DNA of 64,000 nucleotides from Dimargaris cristalligena (Eukaryota > Kickxellomycota > Dimargaritomycetes > Dimargaritales > Dimargaritaceae): positions 1 through 64,000 of the forward strand of contig JANBQC010000026.1 in NCBI GenBank assembly GCA_027576995.1, read 5' to 3'. The translations under genes were made by a program, and so were the position numbers. Under the pieces are notes generated by a model. It had not been told where the DNA came from and did no database searches. It saw only the letters and a list, made by a program, of their open reading frames with translations. Below, in pieces: positions 27,401-45,619 of this stretch (position 1 is its first letter; each line of letters starts with the position of its first letter).

Positions 27401-29418
27401 GCGCAACGAATCCCAGCTGGCCAAGGTTGGCCAAGCCGACTGTGTAATCTGTCAGGATTCGCTAAAGGCCTTCCACGCAACCCAGCTACAGTTGGACGAC
27501 ACCCGGCGGCGCCTCTACCTGGCTATTTCCAGCTCACCCCTCGCCAGTAAGGGATGGCAATCGGGCCGGGTGGTTATTCTAACCCCACCGGGACGATGCA
27601 ATCCCACGTTGGGCGTCATTATTCGTACCCAGAGCCACTCCCGGCTACTAGGCCCCGATGCCCTTAGTCGAATTGCGGCACATTGGACGACCACACCGGT
27701 TTCCAACCGGGCCCTGGCCTCGTCGCGCCAACTCACATGTTTAATTGTTGGCAATGAACAGGGTGCCTGGGCCGATAGTCGGGGTAAAATCGCCACCGAC
27801 TCTGAGGATGACCTTTACCCTTTCCTAGATGGCATCCGTGGCGAGGGTGATGTCGAAGTGGGCCGTTGCCCGTTTACCCTGGCTCCACTTGAAGAAGCAT
27901 CCCTCCAGTCCCGAGTAGTTACCGTGGATCTGGCCAGTGTCGCAGTGACCACCGATGTTTCCCTCAAGGTCGGACTATTTACTAGATCAGTTCTCTAGAC
28001 CCTCGTCCTATTGGAACCGCACACACCTTTCAAATCATTGACTAATCCTCTCCCCCATTGGGATGAACTTTTATCTGTGTATTTATGTCGCCTAGATTGA
28101 TGCGGGACTACTCCTGAAGAAATCCCGGACCGCCGAGACCAACCGCGTTGAAAAAGAACTAGTAGAGCTGGCCCAGTCCCATCAGAAAGGTAAGTTGGTT
28201 TTTGAAATCCAACCCCCCAACCCGACTGAATTAGGGCAGGCTCCCTGGTTTGGGCTCTGCTATTCAAACCAGCTTCTAGGTGTAGAGTAAGGGATGGTAT
28301 GGTATGGAACTTTGGGTAGCTACTTCATTCAATCACTGCATTAATCATTCATGTATTGAACACGCGCGCCCGTCTACTTTTTCCATTGATCGACAGACGG
28401 CTGGGCGGAATACGACTGGGGGGCGAAGATTAAGGAACTGGACTTCCAAATCCATCTCCGGGCCCTTGGGGAACTCCGGGGCTCCCTGACCACCTTTGCT
28501 TGCATTCACTGCCCAGACCTAGTTAGCCATGTAAGTGCCCATTGTATCTATATCTTGGGGGATATCGTTGCAGGGATTTCCAACTGTGAATACGAGACCC
28601 GAATGGTAAAAGATCCCAGATTATAATGTATTCCGCCTTAGGACAATGGCTATTCGGTGTGAAGGCGGGAGCCGACTGGTTGGGACGACACTAATGCGTA
28701 TGGGGTCTTTTTTGTCAATGATTGTGGTACATATATCGGGTGTTGGAACCGGTAGTATCGGATGGTACATAGGCAATATCAGCTGGAAGCCAAATTACAG
28801 GCCCTGCGCCACGCCCTATCGGATCAAAATCTTGAATTGCTCCCGGACTACGAACAGCGACTGGAAGTGCTGCGAACCCTGCAGTGCATTGACCAACGGG
28901 ATAATGTTCTACTCAAAGGAAGGGTGGCTTGCGAAATCAATGCGGCGGATGCGCTCATCCTGACGGAACTGATTCTGGACAATGTCATGGCGGAGTTTGA
29001 GCCTTGTGAGATTGCAGCAATGCTCTGCTGCTTCATTTTCCAGGACCGTAACGCCGGTGAACCATATCTGGTCCCCAATTTGGTCCGGGCCAAAGACCAT
29101 CTTATCCAGGCGCTGAACAAGGTTGACCAGATCCAAATGGCGTGCGGCGTGGCGGACTCCCTTGAGAATACCCTGTGCTTTGGTTTAATGGAGGTCGTGT
29201 ACGAATGGGCCCGTGGGATGACTTTTCGACAGATTATGGATCTTACGGATGTTCAGGAGGGGATTATCGTTCGGGCGATTATTCGCTTAGACGACGTCTG
29301 CCGCGAGGTCCGGACAGCGGCCCGTACCGTGGGAGACAACCGTCTGCTCGAAAAGATGGAGCAGGTATCGAGCCTAATTCGACGGGATATTGTGTTTACA
29401 GCCAGTCTCTACTATTAA
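24452..29418 (+). CDS. SKI2: Ski2-type DEVH-box RNA helicase (Ski complex, exosome cofactor)
   Basis: ATP-dependent 3'-5' RNA helicase of the cytosolic Ski complex, which feeds mRNA into the exosome for 3'-5' decay. Eight exons join in phase: 24452-24515, 24653-24774, 24865-24998, 25153-25270, 25398-27968, 28096-28189, 28397-28530 and 28756-29418, giving 1299 residues (yeast 1287, human 1246). An alternative exon 3 start at 24883 is also in frame. The N-terminal region has the family's FLRPDPVFP and EWAHEVDVT anchors. Helicase motifs: FQKQAVYHLEQGDFVFVAAH, then TSAGKT (Walker A, about residue 360), TSPIKALSNQKFRDF, VVFDEVHYVND (about 450), LLSATIPN, GIHHGGLLPIVKEMVE, FATETFAMGVNMPARTVVF, QMAGRAGRRGLD. 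An arch-type insertion with KOW-like segment follows, then the C-terminal helical domain ending LLRRDIVF-type (SLIRRDIVFTASLYY). The donor after exon 5 is GTCGGA, which is unusual. Confidence 0.95.
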
Positions 29419-30586: not shown

Positions 30587-33500
30587 ATGGACTGGAAGGA
30601 TCCGGTCTCCCAGGGCGACTCCGGCTCGTTCAAGGACGCCGCGGATCACATCAATGTAACCATTCGCATCCGGCCCTTAAATGCGCGAGAACTCCGTACC
30701 GGCGGCACCCTCAACGCCTGGTCTGTTCAAAACGACACCATTACCCAACTGCACTACCACACCCATGGTCGCTCGTCCATTGGTAACTCATTTACCTTTG
30801 ACCATATTTTCGACCCCCAGCGCTCAACCAAGGAGGTCTTCAATGCGGTGGCCCAGGACATTATCCACTCCACCATGGACGGCTTCAACGGAACCATTTT
30901 TGCCTACGGTCAGACCTCGTCGGGGAAGACCCACACCATGTACGGTATCCCCGAAGAACCCGGTATTATCGACCTGTCCATCCGCCGCATATTCGAACGT
31001 ATTGAGCAGACCCCGGACCGCGAGTATCTGCTACGCGTCTCGTTCCTCGAAATCTACAACGAGGTTATCAAGGACCTCCTCAACCCCGAAAACCACCACC
31101 TGAAGATCCACGAACACGCCACCCGCGGTATATTTGTGGGTAACCTGACCGAAAACATCGTCATGTCCGTCCACGACGTCAAACTACTGCTGGAACAGGG
31201 TGATCGCAACCGCCATGTGGGGGAAACCAACATGAACGACCGGAGTAGTCGTTCCCACACCATTGTGCGCATGGTGATTGAGAGTCGGGAGCGCAGCATC
31301 GATGAAAAGGCCGTCGAGGGGGTCGCCGCCACCACGTACTCGGGTGCCGTTAAGGTCTCGTGCCTCAACCTGGTCGATCTGGCCGGTTCCGAACGGGTAG
31401 CGCATACGGGGGCCGAAGGCGCCCGCCTGCGAGAAGGTGCCCACATTAATAGGAGTTTGCTGGCCCTCGGCACCGTCATTGCCAAGCTAACCGAGAATGA
31501 CGGGGACCGATCCAACGTGCATATTCCCTACCGGGACTCTAAACTCACCCGGATTCTCGAACCATCCCTCGGCGGCAATGCCAAAACCGCCATTGTGTGT
31601 ACCATCACCCCGGCGTCCACCCATGTGGAGGAAACCCTGAGTACCCTCAAGTTTGCCAACCGGGCCAAGAACGTGTGCAACAAACCCGAGATCAACGAGG
31701 AACTGACCGGCGAAGCCCTCTTACGCGTTTACCACAAGGAAATATCCATGCTAAAGAAAAAGCTGGACGAATACCGCACCATGAACGGCTCCCTCGAGAT
31801 TGAAAAGCTTACCCATCAGAAGATGCAGATTGAAGAATACAACGAGGAGATCCGGCGCCAGTTGAGAGAAAAAGAGGGCGAGGAGGCCCGACTCAAGAAG
31901 CATTACGAGGAACTGAAAATGATGATTCTTGATTCCACCCGTCTCCGTAATTCGGACATCCCCCAGGCCCGCAGGATCCGACGTCAAACGTGGTTTCCTG
32001 GTACCCGAGGTGCGCTGGAGGAATTAAAATCGCCCCGGGGGCTTGAGCCCGTAGAGCCCGCGGCCGAAGTTCGGACCGTGCCGTCGCCTTCGACAACCAG
32101 TCCAGCCCACCTTTCAGAGACGGAAACCGATCCTCCCACTCCCTCCGCCGACGCTGACGCCACTACCGATACCCGACCCCCACTCGGCCGGTGCCAAAGC
32201 ACGCGTGCTGGCAAACGCCGCGCCTCTGAAATGGAGGATGCCGGTTACCTTGATAACCTTCCCATTAGCCGCCACCAAAACACCTTCGCCAAGATTGTCC
32301 AACAGCAGCAGGTTATCACTGGGCTTCAAGACGAAATTACGCAAATCCGATCCAAGAGCCAGGAGGATGCCGCTCAGCTTACCGGCCTCTCCCAGCGGAA
32401 CCAAGGGCTACTCGAGGGGGTTCAGCGACTGATGTCGGGTCTGGACGATGCACCGATTGAATCGTTGCCCCAGGAATTAAAGGTTTGTTTTCATTCCCAT
32501 ACATCCGCGGGGCCCTACGAGTTCCCCCCCGGCCAGAACTGATTGCCTTTCATGGCCAATACCACTATTTCTAACTCATCTTGCCATATATAATTCTTAA
32601 TAATTTTACTTGCACTGTTATAGGAACTCCGGAGCTATCTCCGCAACTACCGCCAAGCCCTCAGTTTTACCAAGACTACCTTCAAGCGCAACGCTAAGCG
32701 ACAGAAAGAGAACTGCGAGTTTGTGACCCTAGAACTCAAAGCCACCCAGCTTGCTTACGAAGAACTCCAGGGCAAGCATATGCAGGTAAGCCCCCATTGG
32801 TGATTAGCAAGGTCCCCTTCGTCCCAGGACCGCTCCATAGTGATCCCACCCATGTTGCCTTTTAAACCGATTATACTCCTAATCCTCCATTGCCCTATGA
32901 TTTCCCTCTCTATGTCATGGACCATATCTTTCCCGGTGCGTAGGAGCAAGCTACCCTAAACGATAAAATCGCCCAATTGACCGACAGGTACACTAGCTTA
33001 GAGGAGCGCAGTCATATGGAACAGGGACTGCTCAACCAACAGCTGCAGGAGTATAAGAAGAAACTGGCTCAAAAGAAGGAGCTCCAGGCGCAACTGGAGG
33101 CCGCCCAGGCAAGCCAGTCCCAATCGGCCGACCGAATAGTGCAGCTAACGGAGGAAATCCAGGAAATTACAACCAATCTGCGGAATCAGCAGTCGGGTCA
33201 CGACCAGACCGTGGCGGCCCGGGAGGCCGAACTACAGGCCACCCACGATCAGGTGCAGTCCCTCCAACTCCGAATCATCGGTTTGGAATCCGAACGGGAT
33301 GATCTGAATAGCCAACTTGATGATTATCGCGATGTCCTGGGATTTATTCGCCCCGCGCTCACTGACCTGCACACCCAACGAACCGATTTCGAACAAGGCG
33401 CTCAACTAATAATCGACGAAGGTCGGGCTATAATTACCCAGTTTCAGGCCCAGCTGGCGGAAGAGCGAGCCGCCAGTCAGGCCTTGACCGCAGCGCGAGG

Positions 33501-36500
33501 CCAGCTGGCCCTCGACCTGCAAGCGGCCCAGGACCTCGTCGAGCAACTGCAGGTCCAACTCACCCGCCAGGCGGCCGCTGGAGAAGAACATCTGCGCACC
33601 AAAGTCACTGAAATTAACCACCTCCGTGACCAAGTCCAGGTGGCCACCGCCGGACTCGTTGATCTACAGGCCCGGCACGCCCAGGAATTACAACAGCTGC
33701 GCCACGAGGCCGAGGGCAACCATTCCACGGCCACTGACCAACAGGTGACCCTTCAACACCAGATTGCCACGCTTACCCAACGCCACGAGACCGAGCTGCG
33801 CACTTACGCTACCACCGCCCAGGAGACTCAAAATCGTCTGGAGGAGGCTGAGTCGACGTTAACCGAGCGGACAACCGAGCTCGAGCTGGTGCGGGGTCAA
33901 CTGATTACCACCGCTAGAGAACTAGCCCAGTGGCAGAGCCGCCATGGAGAGGTGGCTGCTCAATATGCCACCTACCGCACCGAGACCCAGAGCGAGAACG
34001 AGGCCCGTGATGCCATGGTGGTTGAGCTGCGGAATGCCCTGACGGCTGATCGCCAAATCATTCATCAACAAAACCTACACAACCAGGAGCTTACCGAACG
34101 ACTGGCCCAAAATGACGCAGTCATGGCCCAGTGTGAGTCGGAGCTGACCGCCCGGCTCGAGAAACTGGTGGAGACCTCCGCCACCCTAGAGGCCCAGCTC
34201 AACCAATGGCGGTCGGAATACTCCGACCTGGCCGAATTGCACCGGGAACTGCAGGACCGCGAGCGTGCCACCCAGGAGGCTTTGGATAACCTTAACGAGG
34301 AGGGTGGTAGCAAAGAGACCCAGTACCAGGCCCAAATCGTTGCGCAGTCGGCCAAAATCAGCGAGCTGGAGCTAACCATGTCCACCCTGGCGCAGGAGCG
34401 GGATACCTCCCGGCTAGACCATCAAATGCTTCAGAGCCAAGCGGAATCCACTCGAGCTGAAGGGGAGTTGATGCGAGCCCAATGCGAAACCCTGACGGCG
34501 GACTGTTCCCGACTAGAAACCCTTCACGCCACGGCCCTCCAAACGCTGCAGGACGAACTGCGGCTCAAGGAAACTGCCTTAACGGACTGCATAGCCAAGC
34601 ACGAGGTCCTGGTTACCCAGCACAATACGCTCCAGGCTGAACTCGTGGAGACCAAAAGCCAGTGGCAGCTTCAATTGGAGGGCTGCCGGGGCCATACCCG
34701 GCAGTTGACTGAGACTGAGGCACAGCTGCAGGCGGACCAAGCCACCGCTCAGACCCGGATTGATGAGCTGACCACGTCATTGGAGGCTATCCGAGCCGAC
34801 TCTAATCAACTGGGAACGGCCCAGGCTTCAATTGATCAGCTTAAAGCCCAGTTGGCCGTCCGCGCTGATGAACTGACCCAGGCCCGGGCAGCCACAAGCC
34901 AGCTGGAGGTCGTTAAGGCCGGGTTGGAGGAGAAGCTCGCCACTGCCGACCACAACACCGCTGAATTAGTGGCCCTTTCGAGTCGTAATATCAGCGATCT
35001 GAACAATTCAGTGGGTAGTCTCCAAGAAGAACTGGTAACGTCCTACACCCTGCTCGAAAAATCCCGCTCGGAATACGCCAGTCTCAAGACCAAATACGAC
35101 GAGGAGATGGCCACCCACCTGAATGTCACCGAACAGCTGCGCCATCTCCAGCAGACCAATTCCACCAGTAGCTCCCAACTCACCCGTGCCAATGCCAAGT
35201 TGGAGATGGCGTTGGAGGAAATCCAAAAAGCCCTGGGTCACGAAAAGACTCGCTATAGCGAGCTACAGGTTCGCTTGGATGCGGCTCGGACTGTCATTCA
35301 AACCAGGGAGCAGCAGCTTGGCCAGTTAACCGTCGAGCTACAGGCCACCCAGAGCAGGCTCGAGGAAGCGGGCCAGACTCGACAAGCCGATTTGGAAACG
35401 CAGGCTCAGTTCCGCAAGGCCCACGACGCCCAACTTGAGGAATATACGCAACTTCAGATTAGGTTGGAACAGGAGCGGGGGGTCACCCAGGCCAAGATTA
35501 AGGCGGTTCAGGCCGAGGTCCGCGCCAGCCAGGCAGTGGTGGGCGACTTACGCACGGAACTGGACCAGTCCCGGACTCAAGTCCAGGAACTGCAAAATCA
35601 GCGTAACCAGTTCGAACTCCAGTGTACCGAGCTGGGGCACGAGAAACAGCGGTTGACCAACGAACTCGACCGTGCCCGGCTGTCCAATGAAGCTACTTTG
35701 AATGGAAACACTGCGCGAATCTCGGAGCTTATTGCCCACCGTGATGCGGAACGGGGTCGGGTCGCGGAGCTAGAATGTACTCGGACTTCGTTAGAGGCCC
35801 AAATCCACCACATGTCGGGGGAGATTCGCGAGGCCCTGGCCGCTCGCGAAGAGGCCCAGTCCACGGCGGCACTGGAGCGGACTGCTGCCCAGGAAGCCTG
35901 GGATAGTCAAGCCACCGATTACGAGACTAGTATACGCGCTGCCGAGGAGCTCGCCACCCAGCGGGCCCAGGCCATTGCTCTGCTTGAGACACAGATGGCT
36001 GAACTGACGGACCATGTGGCCAGCAAGGAACAGGCGATTCAGGCGTTCAAGACAGCTAAAATCGATAGCCAGACCCAGCTCTTCGAACTCACCGAGAAGG
36101 CCAGCGCCTTTAAACAGGAGCGGAAGGCCTTGACCGAGAAATTGGCAAAGCTGCTAAGCGAGGATGCCATCCGCAAGGTAAGTCGCTGGTGTTTGCCGCC
36201 AACCTATAGTAGTTACAGATATTTTATGGAGCACCCTGAGAATGGTGATTTGGATCGATTGTATCTGCCGTCATTTCTCTTTCGCTAACTTGGACTCTCC
36301 TCCACTTGCTATTTTCCAATCCGCAGGATCAAATCGATTTTCAAAAGACCGAGCTTGATAAATGGAAGTTGGCCTTCAAGCACGAGCAAAAGATAACTCG
36401 CAAACTGGCGGAGGAGTGCGAATCCCGGATCCGTGAACAGCAGCAGTCAATGAAGGGGAAGCAAAAGCAGCTCGCCGAGCTGGAGCAACTGCTGGCGCAG

Positions 36501-37136
36501 CGGGAGGATGAAGCCGAGGCTACGGCACTCGAGTTGGTCGAGGCCAAACAGATGGTGGCCTCGTATGCCCAGCCGAGGGAGCTGTCCCCCGAGACCCTGG
36601 ATAGACATCCCTACGTACAGGCGTACCAGCAAACCATCGCTAACCTAGAGCAGGATAATCATCGCCTCCAGCGGGATTATGACGCCTCCGTCGAAACCCA
36701 AAAACAGGGAACGGCCAAGACGCGACAGCTTACCCAGGATGTCAACCAGTTGCAAGTGGACAATAAGCGCTTGCGCAGGGACTGCGAGCGCCTCCAAAAG
36801 CAAGCGGCGGCCACCGGCCCCCCGACCGCCAAAGTTCCCCTTAAACCCAGTGCCAACCAGGTGGCCATCCCTCCAACCGACTCGCTGGGGGGCAAGGATG
36901 TCTACCAGCCCAGCTTCCTACCCCCGACTGTGACCGGCCCCCCTCCCCGACGTGTCACCCGAGCCAGTTCCCAGCGTGCACAGCGCGGTGACCCCAAGGC
37001 TTCCAACCACGTGGATGAGAATGGAATGGCTATGCCCGTTCCCGTCGCCCGAGTCACCCGCCAGAGCCAGCGCCACAAGCAGGTGACCAGTGCCGAGGCT
37101 CCCCCCAATGACAACAGCGACTGTAAACAGCAGTAG
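30587..37136 (+). CDS. CENP-E-like kinesin-7 with a very long coiled coil
   Basis: A plus-end-directed kinesin; animal CENP-E carries chromosomes at kinetochores. Four exons, each a multiple of three: 30587-32482, 32624-32785, 32944-36177 and 36327-37136, giving 2033 residues. The N-terminal motor (residues about 20-375) has VTIRIRPLNARE, the P-loop AYGQTSSGKTHTM (about 105), switch I NDRSSRSHT (about 217) and switch II DLAGSERVAHTG (about 264). Closest to CENP-E are DREYLLRVSFLEIYNEVIKDLL, INRSLLALGTVIAKL, YRDSKLTRILEPSLGGNAKT and the neck LLRVYHKEISMLKKKLDEY. RRQTW (465-469) follows the neck, as RRVTW does in human CENP-E. Residues about 600-1930 are Gln/Glu/Leu-rich coiled coil. The basic Ser/Thr/Pro tail ends NSDCKQQ, a CaaX-like box; human CENP-E ends CKTQ. 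Fungal kinesin-7 proteins such as Kip2 and Tea2 lack this long stalk. Motor and length are certain; kinetochore function is inferred. Confidence 0.92.
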
Positions 37137-38274
37137 CTGATTGCGACGGGGTTGCACTTCGTATTTGGGCCACCGAATCCCCCCCCACACACACACACAA
37201 TATCAACCAAATACCGGCCAGTCTACCTGGTGAGAGTTGGTTATGGGCTGGCGTAGTGTGGGCATAGTATACCCTTAGCCAGAGACCCAGACCCGACGGC
37301 GTTTGCAATGATTAGTAGTCGCCCACCGGTATTGATACTAACGACATCCTCATCTTTCTGTCCTCCTCCGCCGTAATGATCATTGTAAATTTAAATATCC
37401 GACTCAATCACAGGACCACCTCCTCCCTTGGACGCTCCTGACTCGGCCTTAACCCCGAGATTGTTTCCTACCCAATGTATCTTTTCTCCCACTAACCCCA
37501 ATGTAGTGTGTACACTCTTCCTCCTCAATCCAAAACCTCCTTTTTTCTATACTATTATAATTGCTAAACTAATCTTGATTGAGATATACCATTCTACACC
37601 GTACCCACCTTTAATCACCTTACAATAAACTCGCTTATAATTGGCATTTGGTTAGGACCCACAACTGACCATCTCAATACTATTGATTGGGGGTTATAAT
37701 TTGGGTAACACCTGGATCCAAGGGGAATCGGTTCCGAAGTTTTGTAGCGTGCGGATTCTAACTGCTTTAAAACCTCCTTAGGTTGCTCTAGCGAATACTT
37801 CCCCACACCTCAATGAATTAAGAGAGAGGAGGAGGGGGGCGTCTTAAGGACCACCCACCATATAACTATACCCTGATGCCAATTAGCGATGGCCATTAGC
37901 GGATACCCGCCCGCCCTGGCCACACACACACATACGCCTTACCACATATGTACTGTTTAGTTCTGGGGGAGAGGGAAGGAGGGACCCGCCGCCAGTGACG
38001 TGACCTACCACGAAGGGAGTGGTGGTAGTAGTCTCGGCTCACCCCGCCCATCTACTATTTCTACGGTGTATTTCCCTGTGGCAGCTTCTACCATGTCGAA
38101 TAGCTAAAGGCACTAGGCGCCTCCTACCCCACCGGTGCTAGCCAGTTCCCACATGCCATACTCATACTCCCAGCCCGTGCAGACCCCACTTTATCCCGGC
38201 TTTCATCAGCTCCCTTACTTGGCTACCATTCCTTTTCTCCCCTACTTTTGTTTCCTTCGCCCACGATAGCCACC
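37137..38274. other. Spacer between kinesin and CAP genes
   Basis: About 1.1 kb without a gene. It contains a CA run at 37186-37199 just past the kinesin stop. The sequence directly before the CAP ATG (CCACCATG) is a favourable initiation context. Confidence 0.5.
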
Positions 38275-39989
38275 ATGTCATCCGACCAAGAACTATTTAG
38301 TTCACTTATCCGCCGTCTCGAGAGCGCAACTCAACGGCTGGAGAAATACGCCCAAAGCCAGGGTGGCGAACCGACCGCCCAGGCGGCCCCGGTACCTGAG
38401 GCACCCGCTACCCCAGTGGAAATCCCCCCGTCTGTGGAGGCCTACGACGAGTTTATAGCCGGGGCTGTCCGTAAGTACCTGGACCTATCGGCCCAGATGG
38501 GCGGGCCTGTGAACGACCAGGCCCAGGCCATGGGTCAGCTCGCCGACTTGCAGCGGGCTTTAATTCTAAGTGCATCCCAGGCTCGCAAGCCGTCGCCCAC
38601 CGCCCCCGAATTCACCAATGCCTTGCAGCCTATGGTTGAGTGCATCAACCGGGCCGATGAGCTGCGCAATCAAAACCGAGCCGACAAGGAGACCTTTAAC
38701 CGCCTGTCGGCCGTGGCCGAAGGCGCGGGGGCCTTTGGCTGGGTGACGGTTGAGCGCGCCCCTGTACCCTATGTGCAGGATATGAAGGAGAGCGCCCAGT
38801 TCTACGGTAACCGGGCGATGAAGGCCGCTAAGGACGCCGGCGAGGATTTGGTTGTCGACTGGGTCAAGAGTTACTCGGCCATGTTAACGGACCTGGCCGA
38901 CTACGTCAAGGCCCACCACAAGACCGGGCTGACCTGGAACCCCAGGGGAGAGGAATTGAAGGACGTCAAGGTCGCCGGGACCCCTGCCCAAGCCGGTGGT
39001 GCTCCTCCCCCACCTCCCCCCCCGCCGCCGCCACCATCGGCTCCTCCGGTGGCCCCCACGGAGGCCAGCCTGGCTCCCGTCGCTCCGGATATGAACGCAG
39101 TATTCAAGCAGCTCAACCAAGGCGAGGCCATCACTTCCGGTCTGAAGAAGGTCGACAAGTCGCAAATGACCCACAAGAACCCCAATTTGCGCTCGGGTAG
39201 TCCGGTGCGCGCCAAATCAGGTACATTTACTTTCCCATTTCCCCGTTGTCTACATGTAGCTGTTACCCACTCGACCGGCCCTCCCCTGGCTAATCGGTGG
39301 CAATGGACTGGTGCCGCTGGTCCGCCATGGTGTACCTTTTGAGTCTCGCTTTTAATCAACCCCGTAGCACCACCGATCCCCCCCTCTCTCTAACCTGTTA
39401 CCTTTTACACCATCTCCATCATCACTGCGTGTCCTCGTTTCCAGCCATCGCCGGCAAAGGCAAGCCCGCCCCACCTATTCCCACCAAGCCCCGTAGTCTA
39501 ACCAAGAAGCCGGCGCCTAAATTCAACCTGGAGGGATCCCGGTGGGTCATTGAAAACCACGAGTCCGGGGAACTAACCGTGGAGATAACGGACATGCGCC
39601 AAAGTGTGTATATTTACAACTGCCAAAATCTGACCGTCCAGATTCGGGGCAAGCTGAATGCCGTGGCCATTGACAAGTGTAAGAAAACGGGAGTGGTGGT
39701 TGAAACCATCATTTCTACTGTCGACGTGATGAACTCTACCTCCTTCAAATTCCAGATTACGGGTCGCTGCCCTGCTCTGCTTTTGGATAAATGTGATGGT
39801 GCCCTGGTGTACCTGAGTAAGGAGTGCGGCGATATCGAAATCACCACGGCCAAAACCTCCGAAATTAATATATCCATCGAAGGGGCCACCGAGGATGAGG
39901 ATTATAAAGAGCATCCTGTCCCCGAACAGCTTCGCACAGTCATCAAAAACGGCAAGCTGGTGACGGTCCCCGTGGAACATACCGGTTAA
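38275..39989 (+). CDS. SRV2: Adenylyl cyclase-associated protein (CAP/Srv2)
   Basis: Actin-monomer recycling factor that also binds adenylyl cyclase in fungi, linking Ras/cAMP signalling to actin. Two exons, 38275-39220 and 39445-39989, join in phase to 496 residues (yeast 526, human 475). I start at ATGTCATCC in a CCACC context. Residues 1-30 carry the cyclase-binding heptad repeat with RLESATQRLE. The helical folded domain spans about 55-235 (EAYDEFIAGAVRKYLDLSAQ, WVTVERAPVPYVQDMKESAQ, FYGNRAMK). A run of about 11 prolines (SH3 or profilin binding) follows, then a WH2-like actin site with MNAVFKQLNQGEAITSGLKKV. The C-terminal beta-helix CARP domain (about 330-496) contains FNLEGSRWVIENH, VYIYNCQNLTVQI, INISI and the final VTVPVEHTG. 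Its domain order is exactly that of the family. Confidence 0.96.
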
Positions 39990-41273: not shown

Positions 41274-44200
41274 TCATATGCGGCCTCGATGCCGTTCCTG
41301 GGATGTGATAAGGTGGGGATAGTCCACTTTGCACTTCCGCTGCCATTGCTGCCACTGGGTAATATATTGGAATGGTTGAAGTCGAATGGGACAGGTCGCG
41401 AGTTCACGCTGCATCGTTTGCATTTCAGAGGTATCAACGGGGAGGGGGGCTCGGTGGCCTTCGGCCCCACGTAATACTACTATTCGTCGAAGACAGTCGA
41501 ATAAAGAAGTGCGTTGAAGTGGTAGCAGAATTAAATGGGTCGAAACCCGGGGCTGTAGATTGCCCCACGTTAGGCTCCACAGGGCAGTCTCGGAAGGTGA
41601 CCAAGGGGCACCTCGAGGCTGCGAACTTTCGCGGTTAGATATCGAGTAGATCTGGTCTAGCCTGGGCCCAGAATATCGAGGGCCCAACTGGTCGTATATA
41701 ACCATCCATTGGTGTTCAATGTCGACCCACTTGGTAAGCGACCGCATCACGATCCCAATAGTCTCGGCGTCGGGCTTCAAGCCGGCCGCAGGAAGAAATA
41801 CGTCGAAGATACGAACACATGCAGCAAAGTCCCCTTGAGACCCCAGGTACCGTAGCCACCGGTGGTAAATAAAAAGCCCCAACCGGCTTCGGGCCCCGTC
41901 GTATTGTTTAGCTCGGTGGGCCGTCTTTGTAAGGATGCCCCGTCGGTGGCCGTGCCATAAAATAAGATCGTGAAGGGCGAGGCTGCGGAAAGTGTCATTG
42001 ATGTAATCGCGAAAGCGGGGTATATCCCAGGTGCAGGGATTTAGACCAGCCGATCCAGTATCCGAATCTGCCAGAGAATGGGCGGGATCTAGGCCAACGG
42101 GTGAATTAGGGGCCGCCAGGATGGGGAGGGCGGCCAATTGGCCACGGTGAACTAAATCTAGGCCCTGATCAAGGAACCGGGTGTGTTGTTGTTCCAGCTG
42201 CGTCACAGCGGCCGCCATCCAAAACAGAGTGCGGGTATTTCCGATTTCCAGGTTAGCGGCCATCCGGGCGGCCTTATCTAGAACGTCCACTCGTACGTCA
42301 GTCACGGTGGCATCAAAGTGGTAACGGGGGCGGTTCGGCCAATGCCCAAGTCCTTGGAGGGACAGTGTATAGGCCTCAGGAAGCGCCCAGGCGTACCACC
42401 ACAGCTGGAGGGCCTGTTCGGGCCGTCGGCCTAGATAGTAGGCCTTCACCAATGTGGTATAAGTGACGACATCGGGGTGAAGCTGGGTGCGGCGAACGAG
42501 TTGATAAACCGCTATGGCACCCGTAATATCGCCCGCTTCGGCAAACGCATTGACAACGGTATTGAAAAGGGTGACATCGGCAGGTGGGCTGGGCGTAGGC
42601 GGGGCCGTTGCACCAGTAAAACGCAGTAGTTGAACTACCGGCTCGTAGTAGGCCAGTTTGCCTAGAATATGCATTACTAAAGAACGAATCACCGGGTCAG
42701 CGGGCCGAAGTGGGCCCAGGTGAAGACAGTGCCCCATTATGCGAATGACCAAAGCGGGAGACACCGGCCGGGTCAGGGCAACCAGCTCATGAGCGCCCAT
42801 GGGCTGAACCCAGTCGCGGTCGAGTATAGTGGGCCAGCCGGGGGCGTCTTCCGGAACCGCCGTATCCTTCGCATAGTACGGCCTAACGCCCTGCTGAAGA
42901 AGGGCGAATAGGCTGGGTAAACTGCGAACTACACTTTCGGCGCGGCGGACGACGGAGGGGGGTCGGCTAGGGAGCGGGGCAGTGGGGGCGGGGGGGGAGA
43001 GAGCAAGATCCCTGAGTAACGGGTTAATAATAACTCGCAAAAGGGTAGTGAGTACCCGGCCATCAACTTGGTAGTCTCGTTCGCTAATCAGCACCCGAAG
43101 GAGGTAGACAAGCTCTTCGACGTTGCTGTAGTGGGCCACTAGGTCCACAAGGGGAGCGTAGACAGAGCAGTTCGGCGGTAGCGCAGTGTCCTGGGGGATC
43201 CTTAGGGCTAACAGTTGGAGCAAAGGCCTAGAGCGACGAAATTGGACCAGCTGAAGAAGTTGTTGGTAAACCCTGGGCCCGGGTGACCATCGGGGGGAGC
43301 GTTGGTGGTCAAGAGTCTGAACCTTCCGAAGGGTCGTTTCAAGCGCGGCCAAATGGTCCGAGGGGCTTTCTTGGCAGGGAGTGGGGGTTACGGATGGGGT
43401 CACGAACAGATAGTGATGCCGCTTCAGTACCCGGGCCGCCAGTTGCGCATTGCGGTGCCGGATACTGAGGCGTAACAGGTGCTCAAAAAGAGCCGCTTGG
43501 GGAAAAATGCAAAATTGCGAAATGGGTGCCGTGAAGAAGCCAAGGGAGCCCCTCGGGCGAGACGATGCGGCCCGGGTGGACCACAGGGCGTCTAGTATTT
43601 TGACAGCTTCGGGGTGGGCAGATGGGAATGGTTCCGAAGAACGGTCGGACTGGGGACTACTGGGTGGTGGGGATCGGATAAAATAGCTCCACGGATCCAC
43701 CATCAGATCTAGATAACGGAGGAAACGGAGAGGGGATGTATCGGACGATGCCGGATCCCGCTGGCCGCAGTACTCTGTCACAATGGTAAAACTTTCCGAG
43801 TCGACTAGGCGATGGAACATAGGGGGCCCGGACGTTCGGTCGGCCGACTCCGCTCGTTGCAGAATGGCAACGAGCATTAATCGTTCCAAGTACTGAACGG
43901 CCCGCTCGGGTTGGCCTTGGGCGACAAGATCGCGCAGGCGGACATTCGTTAGGCTAGGGTGGAATACGGGTTGGTCAGCCTGGGGGTACCACCGCACCCG
44001 ATCCAGTAGGAGATCGGTGAATTGAACGGGGGTGGGGCGAGCCGACGGGGAGGCCCAGGTCGATGGGGGATAGGGGACAGCCGTACCGGCTAACTCAGGG
44101 GCGGGGGCAACCAGCGAGCGCAAGGTCACAAGTCGGTAGACTTGCTTGGCCAGGACTGGGTCGTGGATTTGCCGAGCGGCATGGAGCAAGCGGACTAGGG

Positions 44201-45575
44201 ATGTCCGGGGCAGGAGGATTTGGTGGGTTCGGACAAAGAGCCACAAGTGACTTAGCCAAGACCAGTCGCCATGGCTTTCCGCGGAGTCGAGGGCCCGGGC
44301 GATAAATTCGGGAGCGGGCATGATTCCCAGGGACCTCATACTCACTAGCAGACGGCGGTGTTTGGCGGGATCCGATCGGGGGGTTAGAGACGGATAATAC
44401 CACTGCTTGCAGCAGCGTATAAAAGCGGGATCAAAGTGCAATTCCTGGGGGAGAGACTGGTGTAATTGCTGGATAAGCAGATCAAAGAAATCGGATCGGC
44501 TGGCGTCCTGGGACGGTAAATGATGGAATACGTAAGAGGCTACAGCGCCGGCGATTAGGGTATGGAATGAAGGGCCGTCTTTTGAATCAATGGGTACTAT
44601 TGGCGGGTTGGGGTTTGGAAGTCGTGCTAAGAGAGGCCATTGTCGGACGAAGAGGTGGATAAGGGACGGGATCCGAGACAAACGGTCGCACTGGTAACAG
44701 GTACTTAGAATGACGGCCAGATGGGCCAGGGCGGGGGGCTCGCACACGGGTAATTGGGCCAGGCACCCCAATAAATAATGATAATTTTGGTACGGATCAA
44801 GAGCGGCCAATTTAATCGTGATTCGGGCCGGATCAGTCGGTGGACCCCAATGTTCGGCGGAGTCGGTTCTGCAAAGGCGCGTAAATAATAACAAGGAGGA
44901 GTCTAGATCACCCAGTCGCCGGTATACCAGTAAAAGGAGCAGGTAGGACGAATGGTCGGGGGGGATATTATGGAGTATCATGAGTTGCCAGGTCCGGAGA
45001 AATGAGTGAAGGCGCAGCCGCCGCTCTAGAAAAGTCAACACTATATTGAACAGCCGGGTTAGAGTCGAGCGAGACCCAGCGGGGCGATTCGTTGGGGCGA
45101 TATTCGCTAAAATCTCCAGCATCAGCGCGGCGTTATTGCGCCAGTGCCTCCGACTTAATAATAGAAGTAGCTCCTCGATTAGCTGGAGTGGTACGGCACC
45201 TAGCTGGTGACGAGCTCTAATTTCGTTGAAGGTGTACCAAGCAACGGCGACCCGGCCACTAGCGAGGGCGGCCGCCAGCTGGGCCTGGGGGGAATCGGTA
45301 GGAGGCTGTACCGTTGGTGAGGAGCGTGGTGGGCCGGGGACAGAGGTATGGCTTTGGGAATACAGACTCAGTGCCGAGCGCGGGCCGAACCGAGCCCTGG
45401 TACGTAGAGGAGGCGAGGGGAGCCGTATTAAATAGGGAAATAGGGAAGGCCCGAGAAAACAACGCGGGGGGCACTGGGCTCGAACTCCGGCAAGGGGCAG
45501 CCAGCCCATGGTGCCACGGCGGAGGAGCTCGGTGGAATGGTGGGGGGCAAATGCAGCGCTAAGACAAATGGACAC
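41274..45575 (-). CDS. Large pentatricopeptide-repeat (PPR) protein, probably mitochondrial
   Basis: An intronless 1433-residue protein. PPR proteins are helical-repeat RNA-binding proteins that, in fungi, mostly guide expression of mitochondrial transcripts. The clearest PPR pair lies near residues 1000-1070, with VTLFNTVVNAFAEAGDITGA and VVTYTTLVKAYYLGRRPEQA; weaker helix pairs recur, for example DHSSYLLLLLVYRRLGDLDS near 210-230 and IGIVMRSLTKW near the C-terminus. The N-terminus is rich in Arg, Leu and Ser with almost no acid. It fits a mitochondrial targeting sequence, particularly if translation begins at the second Met (45509; MGWLPLAGVRAQCPP). The TATATA at 45620-45625 is only about 45 nt upstream of the first ATG, which also favours the second. 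I cannot assign it to a named factor. Its length is large for a fungal PPR protein. Confidence 0.8.
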   Translation of the reverse strand: MSICLSAAFAPHHSTELLRRGTMGWLPLAGVRAQCPPRCFLGPSLFPYLIRLPSPPLRTRARFGPRSALSLYSQSHTSVPGPPRSSPTVQPPTDSPQAQLAAALASGRVAVAWYTFNEIRARHQLGAVPLQLIEELLLLLSRRHWRNNAALMLEILANIAPTNRPAGSRSTLTRLFNIVLTFLERRLRLHSFLRTWQLMILHNIPPDHSSYLLLLLVYRRLGDLDSSLLLFTRLCRTDSAEHWGPPTDPARITIKLAALDPYQNYHYLLGCLAQLPVCEPPALAHLAVILSTCYQCDRLSRIPSLIHLFVRQWPLLARLPNPNPPIVPIDSKDGPSFHTLIAGAVASYVFHHLPSQDASRSDFFDLLIQQLHQSLPQELHFDPAFIRCCKQWYYPSLTPRSDPAKHRRLLVSMRSLGIMPAPEFIARALDSAESHGDWSWLSHLWLFVRTHQILLPRTSLVRLLHAARQIHDPVLAKQVYRLVTLRSLVAPAPELAGTAVPYPPSTWASPSARPTPVQFTDLLLDRVRWYPQADQPVFHPSLTNVRLRDLVAQGQPERAVQYLERLMLVAILQRAESADRTSGPPMFHRLVDSESFTIVTEYCGQRDPASSDTSPLRFLRYLDLMVDPWSYFIRSPPPSSPQSDRSSEPFPSAHPEAVKILDALWSTRAASSRPRGSLGFFTAPISQFCIFPQAALFEHLLRLSIRHRNAQLAARVLKRHHYLFVTPSVTPTPCQESPSDHLAALETTLRKVQTLDHQRSPRWSPGPRVYQQLLQLVQFRRSRPLLQLLALRIPQDTALPPNCSVYAPLVDLVAHYSNVEELVYLLRVLISERDYQVDGRVLTTLLRVIINPLLRDLALSPPAPTAPLPSRPPSVVRRAESVVRSLPSLFALLQQGVRPYYAKDTAVPEDAPGWPTILDRDWVQPMGAHELVALTRPVSPALVIRIMGHCLHLGPLRPADPVIRSLVMHILGKLAYYEPVVQLLRFTGATAPPTPSPPADVTLFNTVVNAFAEAGDITGAIAVYQLVRRTQLHPDVVTYTTLVKAYYLGRRPEQALQLWWYAWALPEAYTLSLQGLGHWPNRPRYHFDATVTDVRVDVLDKAARMAANLEIGNTRTLFWMAAAVTQLEQQHTRFLDQGLDLVHRGQLAALPILAAPNSPVGLDPAHSLADSDTGSAGLNPCTWDIPRFRDYINDTFRSLALHDLILWHGHRRGILTKTAHRAKQYDGARSRLGLFIYHRWLRYLGSQGDFAACVRIFDVFLPAAGLKPDAETIGIVMRSLTKWVDIEHQWMVIYDQLGPRYSGPRLDQIYSISNRESSQPRGAPWSPSETALWSLTWGNLQPRVSTHLILLPLQRTSLFDCLRRIVVLRGAEGHRAPLPVDTSEMQTMQRELATCPIRLQPFQYITQWQQWQRKCKVDYPHLITSQERHRGRI

Positions 45576-45619
45576 GGCGACAGCGGCTCGAGAGCAGGCC
45601 GATCGGGGGGATAGTTAAC

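What the first reader, a model, noticed from the sequence alone, without database searches (positions are those of the whole stretch)
37119..37136. Fungal CENP-E-like kinesin ends in a CaaX-like box, CKQQ
The last residues of the 2033-aa kinesin are NSDCKQQ. Human CENP-E ends CKTQ, a known farnesylation site needed for its kinetochore recruitment. In both, Cys is fourth from the end and the last residue is Gln, which favours farnesyltransferase. Together with the CENP-E-like motor, neck and long stalk, this suggests that prenyl-dependent targeting of CENP-E predates the split of fungi and animals. Known fungal kinesin-7 proteins (Kip2, Tea2) are short and have no such end.
Basis: partly seen in the sequence, partly recalled or inferred. 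Interest (0 to 1): 0.78.

Follow-up and report, generated by a model that had tools for sequence, protein, structure and literature searches.

The report
Fungal CENP-E with conserved farnesylation tail
A chromosome-moving motor protein in a little-studied fungus ends in the short lipid-attachment signal Cys-Lys-Gln-Gln, and relatives in other early fungi and in single-celled relatives of animals end in much the same way; this fits an ancient mechanism that was already described in 2023.

Summary
Observation confirmed. The + strand gene at 30587-37136 (four exons, 2033 aa) ends NSDCKQQ-TAG. The organism is Dimargaris cristalligena. The motor groups with CENP-E of Capsaspora, a choanoflagellate, corals and plants. 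The end is conserved: 44 of 52 fungal hits end CxxQ (40 CxQQ), 0 of 33 plant/green-algal ones. CKQQ is experimentally a full FTase substrate that resists CaaX proteases. Of 64 CxQQ-stop sites examined in the genome, four close a frame of 200 aa or more: this kinesin, two Ydj1-like Hsp40s, and a Spindly-like dynein adaptor ending CNQQ. So CENP-E and Spindly, two of the farnesylated corona proteins of humans, seem to share the tail type here.

The evolutionary claim is not new: Wu et al. 2023 placed the CENP-E CaaX box near the base of Obazoa, together with RZZ-Spindly. 'Needed for kinetochore recruitment' is too strong: farnesyl-dead human CENP-E still reaches kinetochores, but without the corona crescent. 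Against: FTase beta was not found, and ROD, Zwilch and ZW10 gave nothing over cut-off (insensitive searches). Verdict: new member of a known kind.

The parts
30587..32482 (+). exon 1: start codon, motor domain (residues 27-363 = 30665-31675), neck and first stalk part
   Evidence: PF00225 E=7e-113; PDB best match human CENP-E 1t5c
32624..32785 (+). exon 2 (stalk)
   Evidence: GT-AG introns on both sides, phase 0
32944..36177 (+). exon 3: coiled-coil stalk (residues 687-1764)
   Evidence: heptad periodicity of residues 600-1885: 0 of 300 shuffles as high; no Pfam family
36327..37136 (+). exon 4: end of stalk, Pro-rich basic tail (from about 36912), CaaX-like end and stop
37122..37133 (+). CKQQ, CaaX-like tetrapeptide (proposed farnesylation site Cys2030)
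   Evidence: CxxQ in 44 of 52 fungal homologues
37134..37136 (+). stop codon TAG

Best explanation
The gene encodes the CENP-E orthologue (long kinesin-7) of Dimargaris cristalligena. Its C-terminal CKQQ is a shunt-type CaaX box: farnesyltransferase attaches a farnesyl group to Cys2030, and the last three residues are then probably kept, not cut off. The farnesylated tail, as in human CENP-E and Spindly, most likely serves as a protein-protein contact with the RZZ-Spindly layer of unattached kinetochores, holding a plus-end-directed motor there, and not as a membrane anchor. Shown here: gene, motor class, conserved end, Spindly-like protein with the same tail type. Shown elsewhere: CKQQ is farnesylated and uncleaved in yeast reporters; human CENP-E needs its site for corona expansion. 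Inferred: modification, retention of the last three residues and corona role in this fungus. My confidences: CENP-E orthologue 0.95, farnesylated 0.85, uncleaved 0.7, corona role 0.55.
For: Motor tree: a 30-row CENP-E/KIN-7O clade with support 100/99 holds the window kinesin; 9 of the 10 other kinesins found in this genome fall outside. PDB best match human CENP-E, 317.8 bits, against 282.8 for KIF3B. CxxQ end in 44 of 52 fungal, 4 of 11 named holozoan, 6 of 20 unnamed, 0 of 3 Amoeboaphelidium, 0 of 1 fungal kinesin-3 and 0 of 33 plant/green-algal rows; a2 is Gln in 40 of the 44 fungal ones (groups assigned by me from the names). Chytridiales sp. and Mycoemilia end CKTQ, as human CENP-E does. 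[quoted passage not shown] Yeast Pex19p, human and plant Nap1, and LKB1 carry CKQQ, and human Spindly CPQQ is predicted to be shunted (PMC9231725, passages). Spindly-like protein in the same genome: AAEIG, LLGEM, end CNQQ; 5 of 6 homologues incl. itself end C[NK]QQ, the sixth is labelled partial and lacks the tail.
Against: FTase beta was not found: the two PF00432 genes are GGTase-I beta and Rab-GGTase beta; a FTase-beta fragment found only these two, a second fragment found nothing at all, not even them, and a pattern search found them and no third one. Intron breaks, a gap in the 779-contig assembly or masked letters could hide it. ROD, Zwilch and ZW10: nothing over the cut-off; KNTC1_N gave three sub-threshold matches (E 0.02 to 0.31), the best a WD-repeat protein, the other two not read. 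The control genomes did not ring in any of these five searches, so this is no proof of absence. The Spindly assignment rests on short motifs, which also match elsewhere in the same proteins; a profile search did not reach any named Spindly. Human data differ on how much the farnesyl matters for recruitment. No expression or localisation data.
Confidence: 0.7

Rival explanations
1. The tail is farnesylated but serves something other than the kinetochore corona, for example binding to the nuclear envelope or spindle microtubules, or folding of the tail.
For: Two Ydj1-like Hsp40s in the same genome also end CxQQ, so the motif is not specific to kinetochores. ROD, Zwilch and ZW10 were not found over cut-off. 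The tail before the box is Pro-rich with net charge +5, as a microtubule-binding tail could be.
Against: A Spindly-like adaptor with the same tail type is present; Wu 2023 reports high co-occurrence of the CENP-E CaaX box and ROD/Zwilch/Spindly orthologues in Obazoa.
Confidence: 0.25
2. The end is not prenylated; Cys at -4 is a relic or is used otherwise.
For: a2 is Gln, not aliphatic, so classical rules would call it weak; FTase beta not found.
Against: Cys and the last Gln are kept in 6 of 6 Dimargaritales while neighbours drift; CKQQ is a proven substrate tetrapeptide in reporters.
Confidence: 0.1
3. Chance or gene-model artefact.
For: Exon ends not checked by RNA.
Against: Same kind of end in the separately predicted proteins of five related species; only 4 of 64 CxQQ-stop sites examined in the genome end a long frame.
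Confidence: 0.02

Closest known systems
Human CENP-E (KIF10, kinesin-7), CaaX box CKTQ
   Same: N-terminal CENP-E-class motor, long coiled coil, Cys at -4 and Gln at -1, non-aliphatic a2
   Different: 2033 aa against 2701 (human numbering); the human corona-targeting loop, sought as GGG[ST]G in the last 450 aa, is absent from 55 of 55 CxxQ-ended kinesins examined; a2 is Gln, not Thr
CENP-E CaaX boxes of Obazoa (Wu et al. 2023, JCB, PMC10630089)
   Same: Same phenomenon in fungi and animals, tied to RZZ-Spindly
   Different: There the box is defined by Cys at -4, and the words CPQQ and glutamine do not occur in the main text; the CxQQ bias shown here is a refinement. Its figures and supplements were not seen
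Human Spindly (CPQQ)
   Same: CxQQ tail; farnesyl-dependent binding to the RZZ complex
   Different: A dynein adaptor, not a motor; its likely counterpart here is P0121
Yeast Pex19p and Ydj1p (CKQQ, CASQ)
   Same: Shunt-type, farnesylated and uncleaved end; Pex19p has the identical tetrapeptide
   Different: Unrelated proteins
Fungal Kip2/Tea2/KipA kinesin-7
   Same: Same kinesin family
   Different: Shorter (Tea2 628, KipA 889, Kip2 706 aa); the second kinesin-7-like gene of this genome (L085) ends LKHKLHNV in the last open frame I saw, without Cys at -4

Membership tests
CENP-E (kinesin-7) | motor groups with CENP-E rather than with other kinesins | tested here: met
   clade support 100/99; best PDB match human CENP-E. 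Named Kip2/Tea2 sequences were not in the tree; only the unnamed paralogue L085 was, and it joined the clade
CENP-E (kinesin-7) | long coiled-coil stalk | tested here: met
   heptad periodicity, residues 600-1885, 0 of 300 shuffles as high
CENP-E (kinesin-7) | kinetochore targeting through the BUBR1 pseudokinase | tested here: inconclusive
   two Mad3/BUB1-region-1 genes; the C572 one is followed by a sub-threshold kinase match, the 474-aa frame of the C272 one has none; full genes not read
CENP-E (kinesin-7) | corona-targeting loop of human CENP-E | tested here: not met
   GGG[ST]G absent in the last 450 aa of 55 of 55 CxxQ kinesins. The loop is described as highly conserved from Xenopus to humans; I take it for a later, non-defining feature
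CENP-E (kinesin-7) | localises to kinetochores | not testable with these tools
   needs microscopy
Shunt-type CaaX protein | Cys at -4 with a tetrapeptide accepted by FTase | tested here: met
   CKQQ in sequence; that the tetrapeptide is a full substrate is from print (PMC11152559 passages)
Shunt-type CaaX protein | FTase present in the organism | tested here: inconclusive
   FTase beta not found, GGTase-I beta and Rab-GGTase beta found
Shunt-type CaaX protein | farnesylated in vivo and uncleaved | not testable with these tools
   needs mass spectrometry
Spindly (P0121, partner candidate) | CC1 box AAxxG and Spindly motif | tested here: met
   AAEIG at 102, LLGEM at 380; both motifs in 6 of 6 homologues; the patterns are short and match a second place in some of them, P0121 included; definitions from PMC9481740 passages
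Spindly (P0121, partner candidate) | C-terminal farnesylation motif | tested here: met
   C[NK]QQ in 5 of 6, the sixth (labelled partial) lacks the tail
Spindly (P0121, partner candidate) | sequence homology to animal Spindly | tested here: inconclusive
   profile search found only the same six proteins; Pfam gives only sub-threshold matches, HAP1_N among them
RZZ complex (context) | ROD, Zwilch and ZW10 genes | tested here: inconclusive
   nothing over cut-off, controls silent

The most novel reading that the evidence does not exclude
CENP-E and Spindly of early fungi and unicellular holozoans share an ancestral, uncleaved C-x-Gln-Gln farnesyl tail that a common receptor (for example the ROD propeller) reads as farnesyl plus the retained Gln-Gln carboxy end. 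Human Spindly (CPQQ) would keep the ancestral form, and human CENP-E (CKTQ) a slightly changed one.
Probability: 0.27. Interest if true: 0.6.

Novelty: new member of a known kind. Interest (0 to 1): 0.38.

Why it matters
It supports, with a dozen genera of early fungi, the published view that a farnesyl-dependent CENP-E/Spindly corona module is older than the fungus-animal split. It adds one testable refinement: the tail is mostly CxQQ, a kind of motif that FTase modifies but CaaX proteases leave alone, in both CENP-E and the Spindly-like adaptor. That points to recognition of the intact tail by a protein and could explain why an unusual tetrapeptide was kept for so long.

Tried and rejected
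Rejected: chance tail; membrane anchoring as first choice, because CKQQ resists cleavage; L071 as ROD, because its frame reads as a WD-repeat protein that I took, from recall, for an Utp15-like one (the weaker KNTC1_N matches L072 and L073 were not read); the C56, C219 and C593 pattern hits as FTase beta, by eye. Led nowhere: Pfam searches for Zwilch, Rod_C, KNTC1_N, ARM_KNTC1_2nd and Zw10_N, with silent controls; the Spindly profile search; PF28219, the precomputed domain on all six Spindly-like proteins and also on one chytrid CENP-E (P0046), is not in the library held. I made no structure prediction; for coiled coils and a disordered tail it would say little.

Dropped or limited: the homologue table shows 120 of 7857 matches, ranked by motor, so the tail counts are of those 120 only. 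Rows are not independent: by my count, 25 of the 44 fungal CxxQ rows are Coemansia and 5 are Batrachochytrium dendrobatidis. The 44 rows span 12 named genera plus one Chytridiales sp.; three more fungal genera (Gonapodya, Nowakowskiella, Bifiguratus) have only rows without CxxQ. The 8 fungal rows without CxxQ are kept in the count; three are labelled partial (P0014, P0027, P0106), the other five are not (P0032, P0033, P0037, P0051, P0100), and P0033 ends CLYL. The 7 named holozoan rows without CxxQ are Acanthoscelides, Notodromas, Oculina, two Stylophora, Papilio and Rodentolepis. Of 101 CxQQ-TRR sites one was not listed by the tool; 36 of the 100 listed end TGG, which is no stop; the 64 others were all examined, and one of these reads C-stop-Q-Q. 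Genes whose last exon is short would be missed by the 200-aa limit.

Full report
Gene and organism. The reported end is present. Four exons with GT-AG introns and phase 0 give 2033 aa ending NDNSDCKQQ. The window is contig C26 of a 27.09 Mb, 779-contig assembly. I take it for Dimargaris cristalligena: another gene of the same assembly is identical over 1000 aa to H4R33_002846 of that species, whose contig length, 51055, equals that of C152; lineage Kickxellomycotina, Dimargaritales.

Motor class. Pfam Kinesin E=7e-113. Best PDB match human CENP-E, 317.8 bits, then another CENP-E, then KIF3B 282.8. In a tree of 42 motors the protein lies in a 30-row CENP-E/KIN-7O clade, support 100/99, with proteins that sources name CENP-E from Capsaspora, Salpingoeca, corals and plants; of the ten other kinesins of this genome only L085 joins that clade. 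The tree warns of long branches among the other paralogues; the window row is not one of them. L085 looks like a second, short kinesin-7 whose last open frame ends LKHKLHNV. Residues 600-1885 show strong heptad periodicity (0 of 300 shuffles as high). The last 74 residues are 13.5% Pro with net charge +5.

The end is conserved. Of the 120 listed homologues, ranked by motor alone, CxxQ ends occur in 44 of 52 fungi, 4 of 11 named holozoans, 6 of 20 without an organism name, 0 of 3 Amoeboaphelidium, 0 of 1 fungal kinesin-3 and 0 of 33 plants and green algae (groups assigned by me from names). In 40 of the 44 fungal ones the end is CxQQ. Of the 44, 25 are Coemansia; 12 named genera and one Chytridiales sp. 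are represented. In the six Dimargaritales, Cys and the last Gln are invariant while the stretch before them drifts. Two fungi end CKTQ, the human CENP-E sequence. The residue before Cys is D, E, N or Q in 60 of 60 CxxQ-ended proteins, 55 kinesins and 5 Spindly-like; the two Hsp40s have E and Q there as well, so this may be a general preference.

Unbiased scan. C-x-Q-Q-TRR occurs at 101 places in the genome, 53 + 48 on the two strands, against 57 for the reversed control pattern. Of the 64 listed sites with a real stop, all examined, four close a frame of 200 aa or more: the kinesin (295 aa, last exon), a DnaJ-type Hsp40 (439 aa, L010; DnaJ domains), a second one (388 aa, L070, read by eye as Ydj1-like, no domain scan) and a coiled-coil protein (L033/L069). 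The last has 1000 aa, AAEIG at 102 (CC1 box), LLGEM at 380 (Spindly motif) and the end CNQQ; homologues in Tieghemiomyces, Dispira simplex, D. xerosporica and Basidiobolus have all three features, and a partial D. verticillata model lacks the tail. The motif definitions come from d'Amico 2022 (PMC9481740, passages). The motifs are short, and each pattern also matches a second place in P0121. I call it Spindly-like, because neither a profile search nor Pfam linked it to animal Spindly.

Prenylation chemistry. In PMC11152559 (passages and section 9; [quoted passage not shown] the human CENP-E and Spindly boxes were completely modified in the same reporter. PMC9231725 (passages) lists CKQQ on Pex19p, human and plant Nap1 and LKB1, and predicts Spindly CPQQ to be shunted, suggesting a role in protein-protein contacts. 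So CKQQ is a good farnesylation signal and its last three residues probably stay.

What the farnesyl does. Wu 2023 (PMC10630089, passages only; [quoted passage not shown] Of the last 12 residues only Cys and the final Gln were needed, and a KRAS4B box could replace the native one; both speak against a strict need for the inner residues in humans. Ciossani 2018 (PMC6028960, passages): the unfarnesylated human construct still reaches kinetochores, at lower levels and without the crescent. Weber 2024 (PMC7617963, passages and section 7): the last 100 residues may contribute modestly.

Novelty. Wu 2023 already states that the CENP-E farnesylation motif arose near the fungus-animal split together with RZZ-S. 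Literature searches: 'Dimargaris' + 'kinesin' gave no paper; 'Spindly' + 'CENP-E' + 'fungi' + 'CAAX' gave only Wu 2023; 'Spindly' + 'CPQQ' gave only PMC9231725. I made no further search for the shared CxQQ tail, and the figures and supplements of Wu 2023 were not seen.

Results against. FTase beta was not located. The pattern search did recover the two sister subunits, while one of the two fragment searches found nothing at all. ROD, Zwilch and ZW10 gave nothing over cut-off, with controls silent; ZW10 is called omnipresent in eukaryotes by Wu 2023, so the failure probably says more about the search than about the genome. Two Mad3/BUB1 genes are present.

Noticed in passing
L069 (G000:C152), minus strand 3329-3038 and 2873-163: Spindly-like dynein adaptor (P0121, 1000 aa, end CNQQ), annotated only as hypothetical protein. 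Three of the five complete homologues (P0122, P0123, P0125) have R[AP]PKQT starting 14-17 residues before the Cys; D. cristalligena itself does not.
   Followed up: partly
L010 and L070 (G000:C2 and C714): Two Ydj1-like Hsp40s ending CNQQ and CAQQ.
   Followed up: partly
L085 (G000:C409): Second, short kinesin-7-like gene in the same genome, apparently without a CaaX box.
   Followed up: partly
G000 as a whole: FTase beta not found although GGTase-I beta (C158) and Rab-GGTase beta (C6) are; probably missed, but worth checking in a complete proteome.
   Followed up: partly
L088 and L089 (G000:C272 and C572): Two genes with Mad3/BUB1 region 1; only the C572 one shows a sub-threshold kinase match downstream, so a BUBR1-type pseudokinase anchor for CENP-E may be lacking.
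   Followed up: partly
last residues of the CxxQ-ended proteins among P0002-P0126 and the window: The residue before the Cys is D, E, N or Q in 60 of 60; reason unknown.
   Followed up: no
window 28756-29418, 38104-39989, 41274-45614: Neighbours: a DSHCT helicase end, cyclase-associated protein CAP, and a PPR protein; no evident link to the kinesin.
   Followed up: partly
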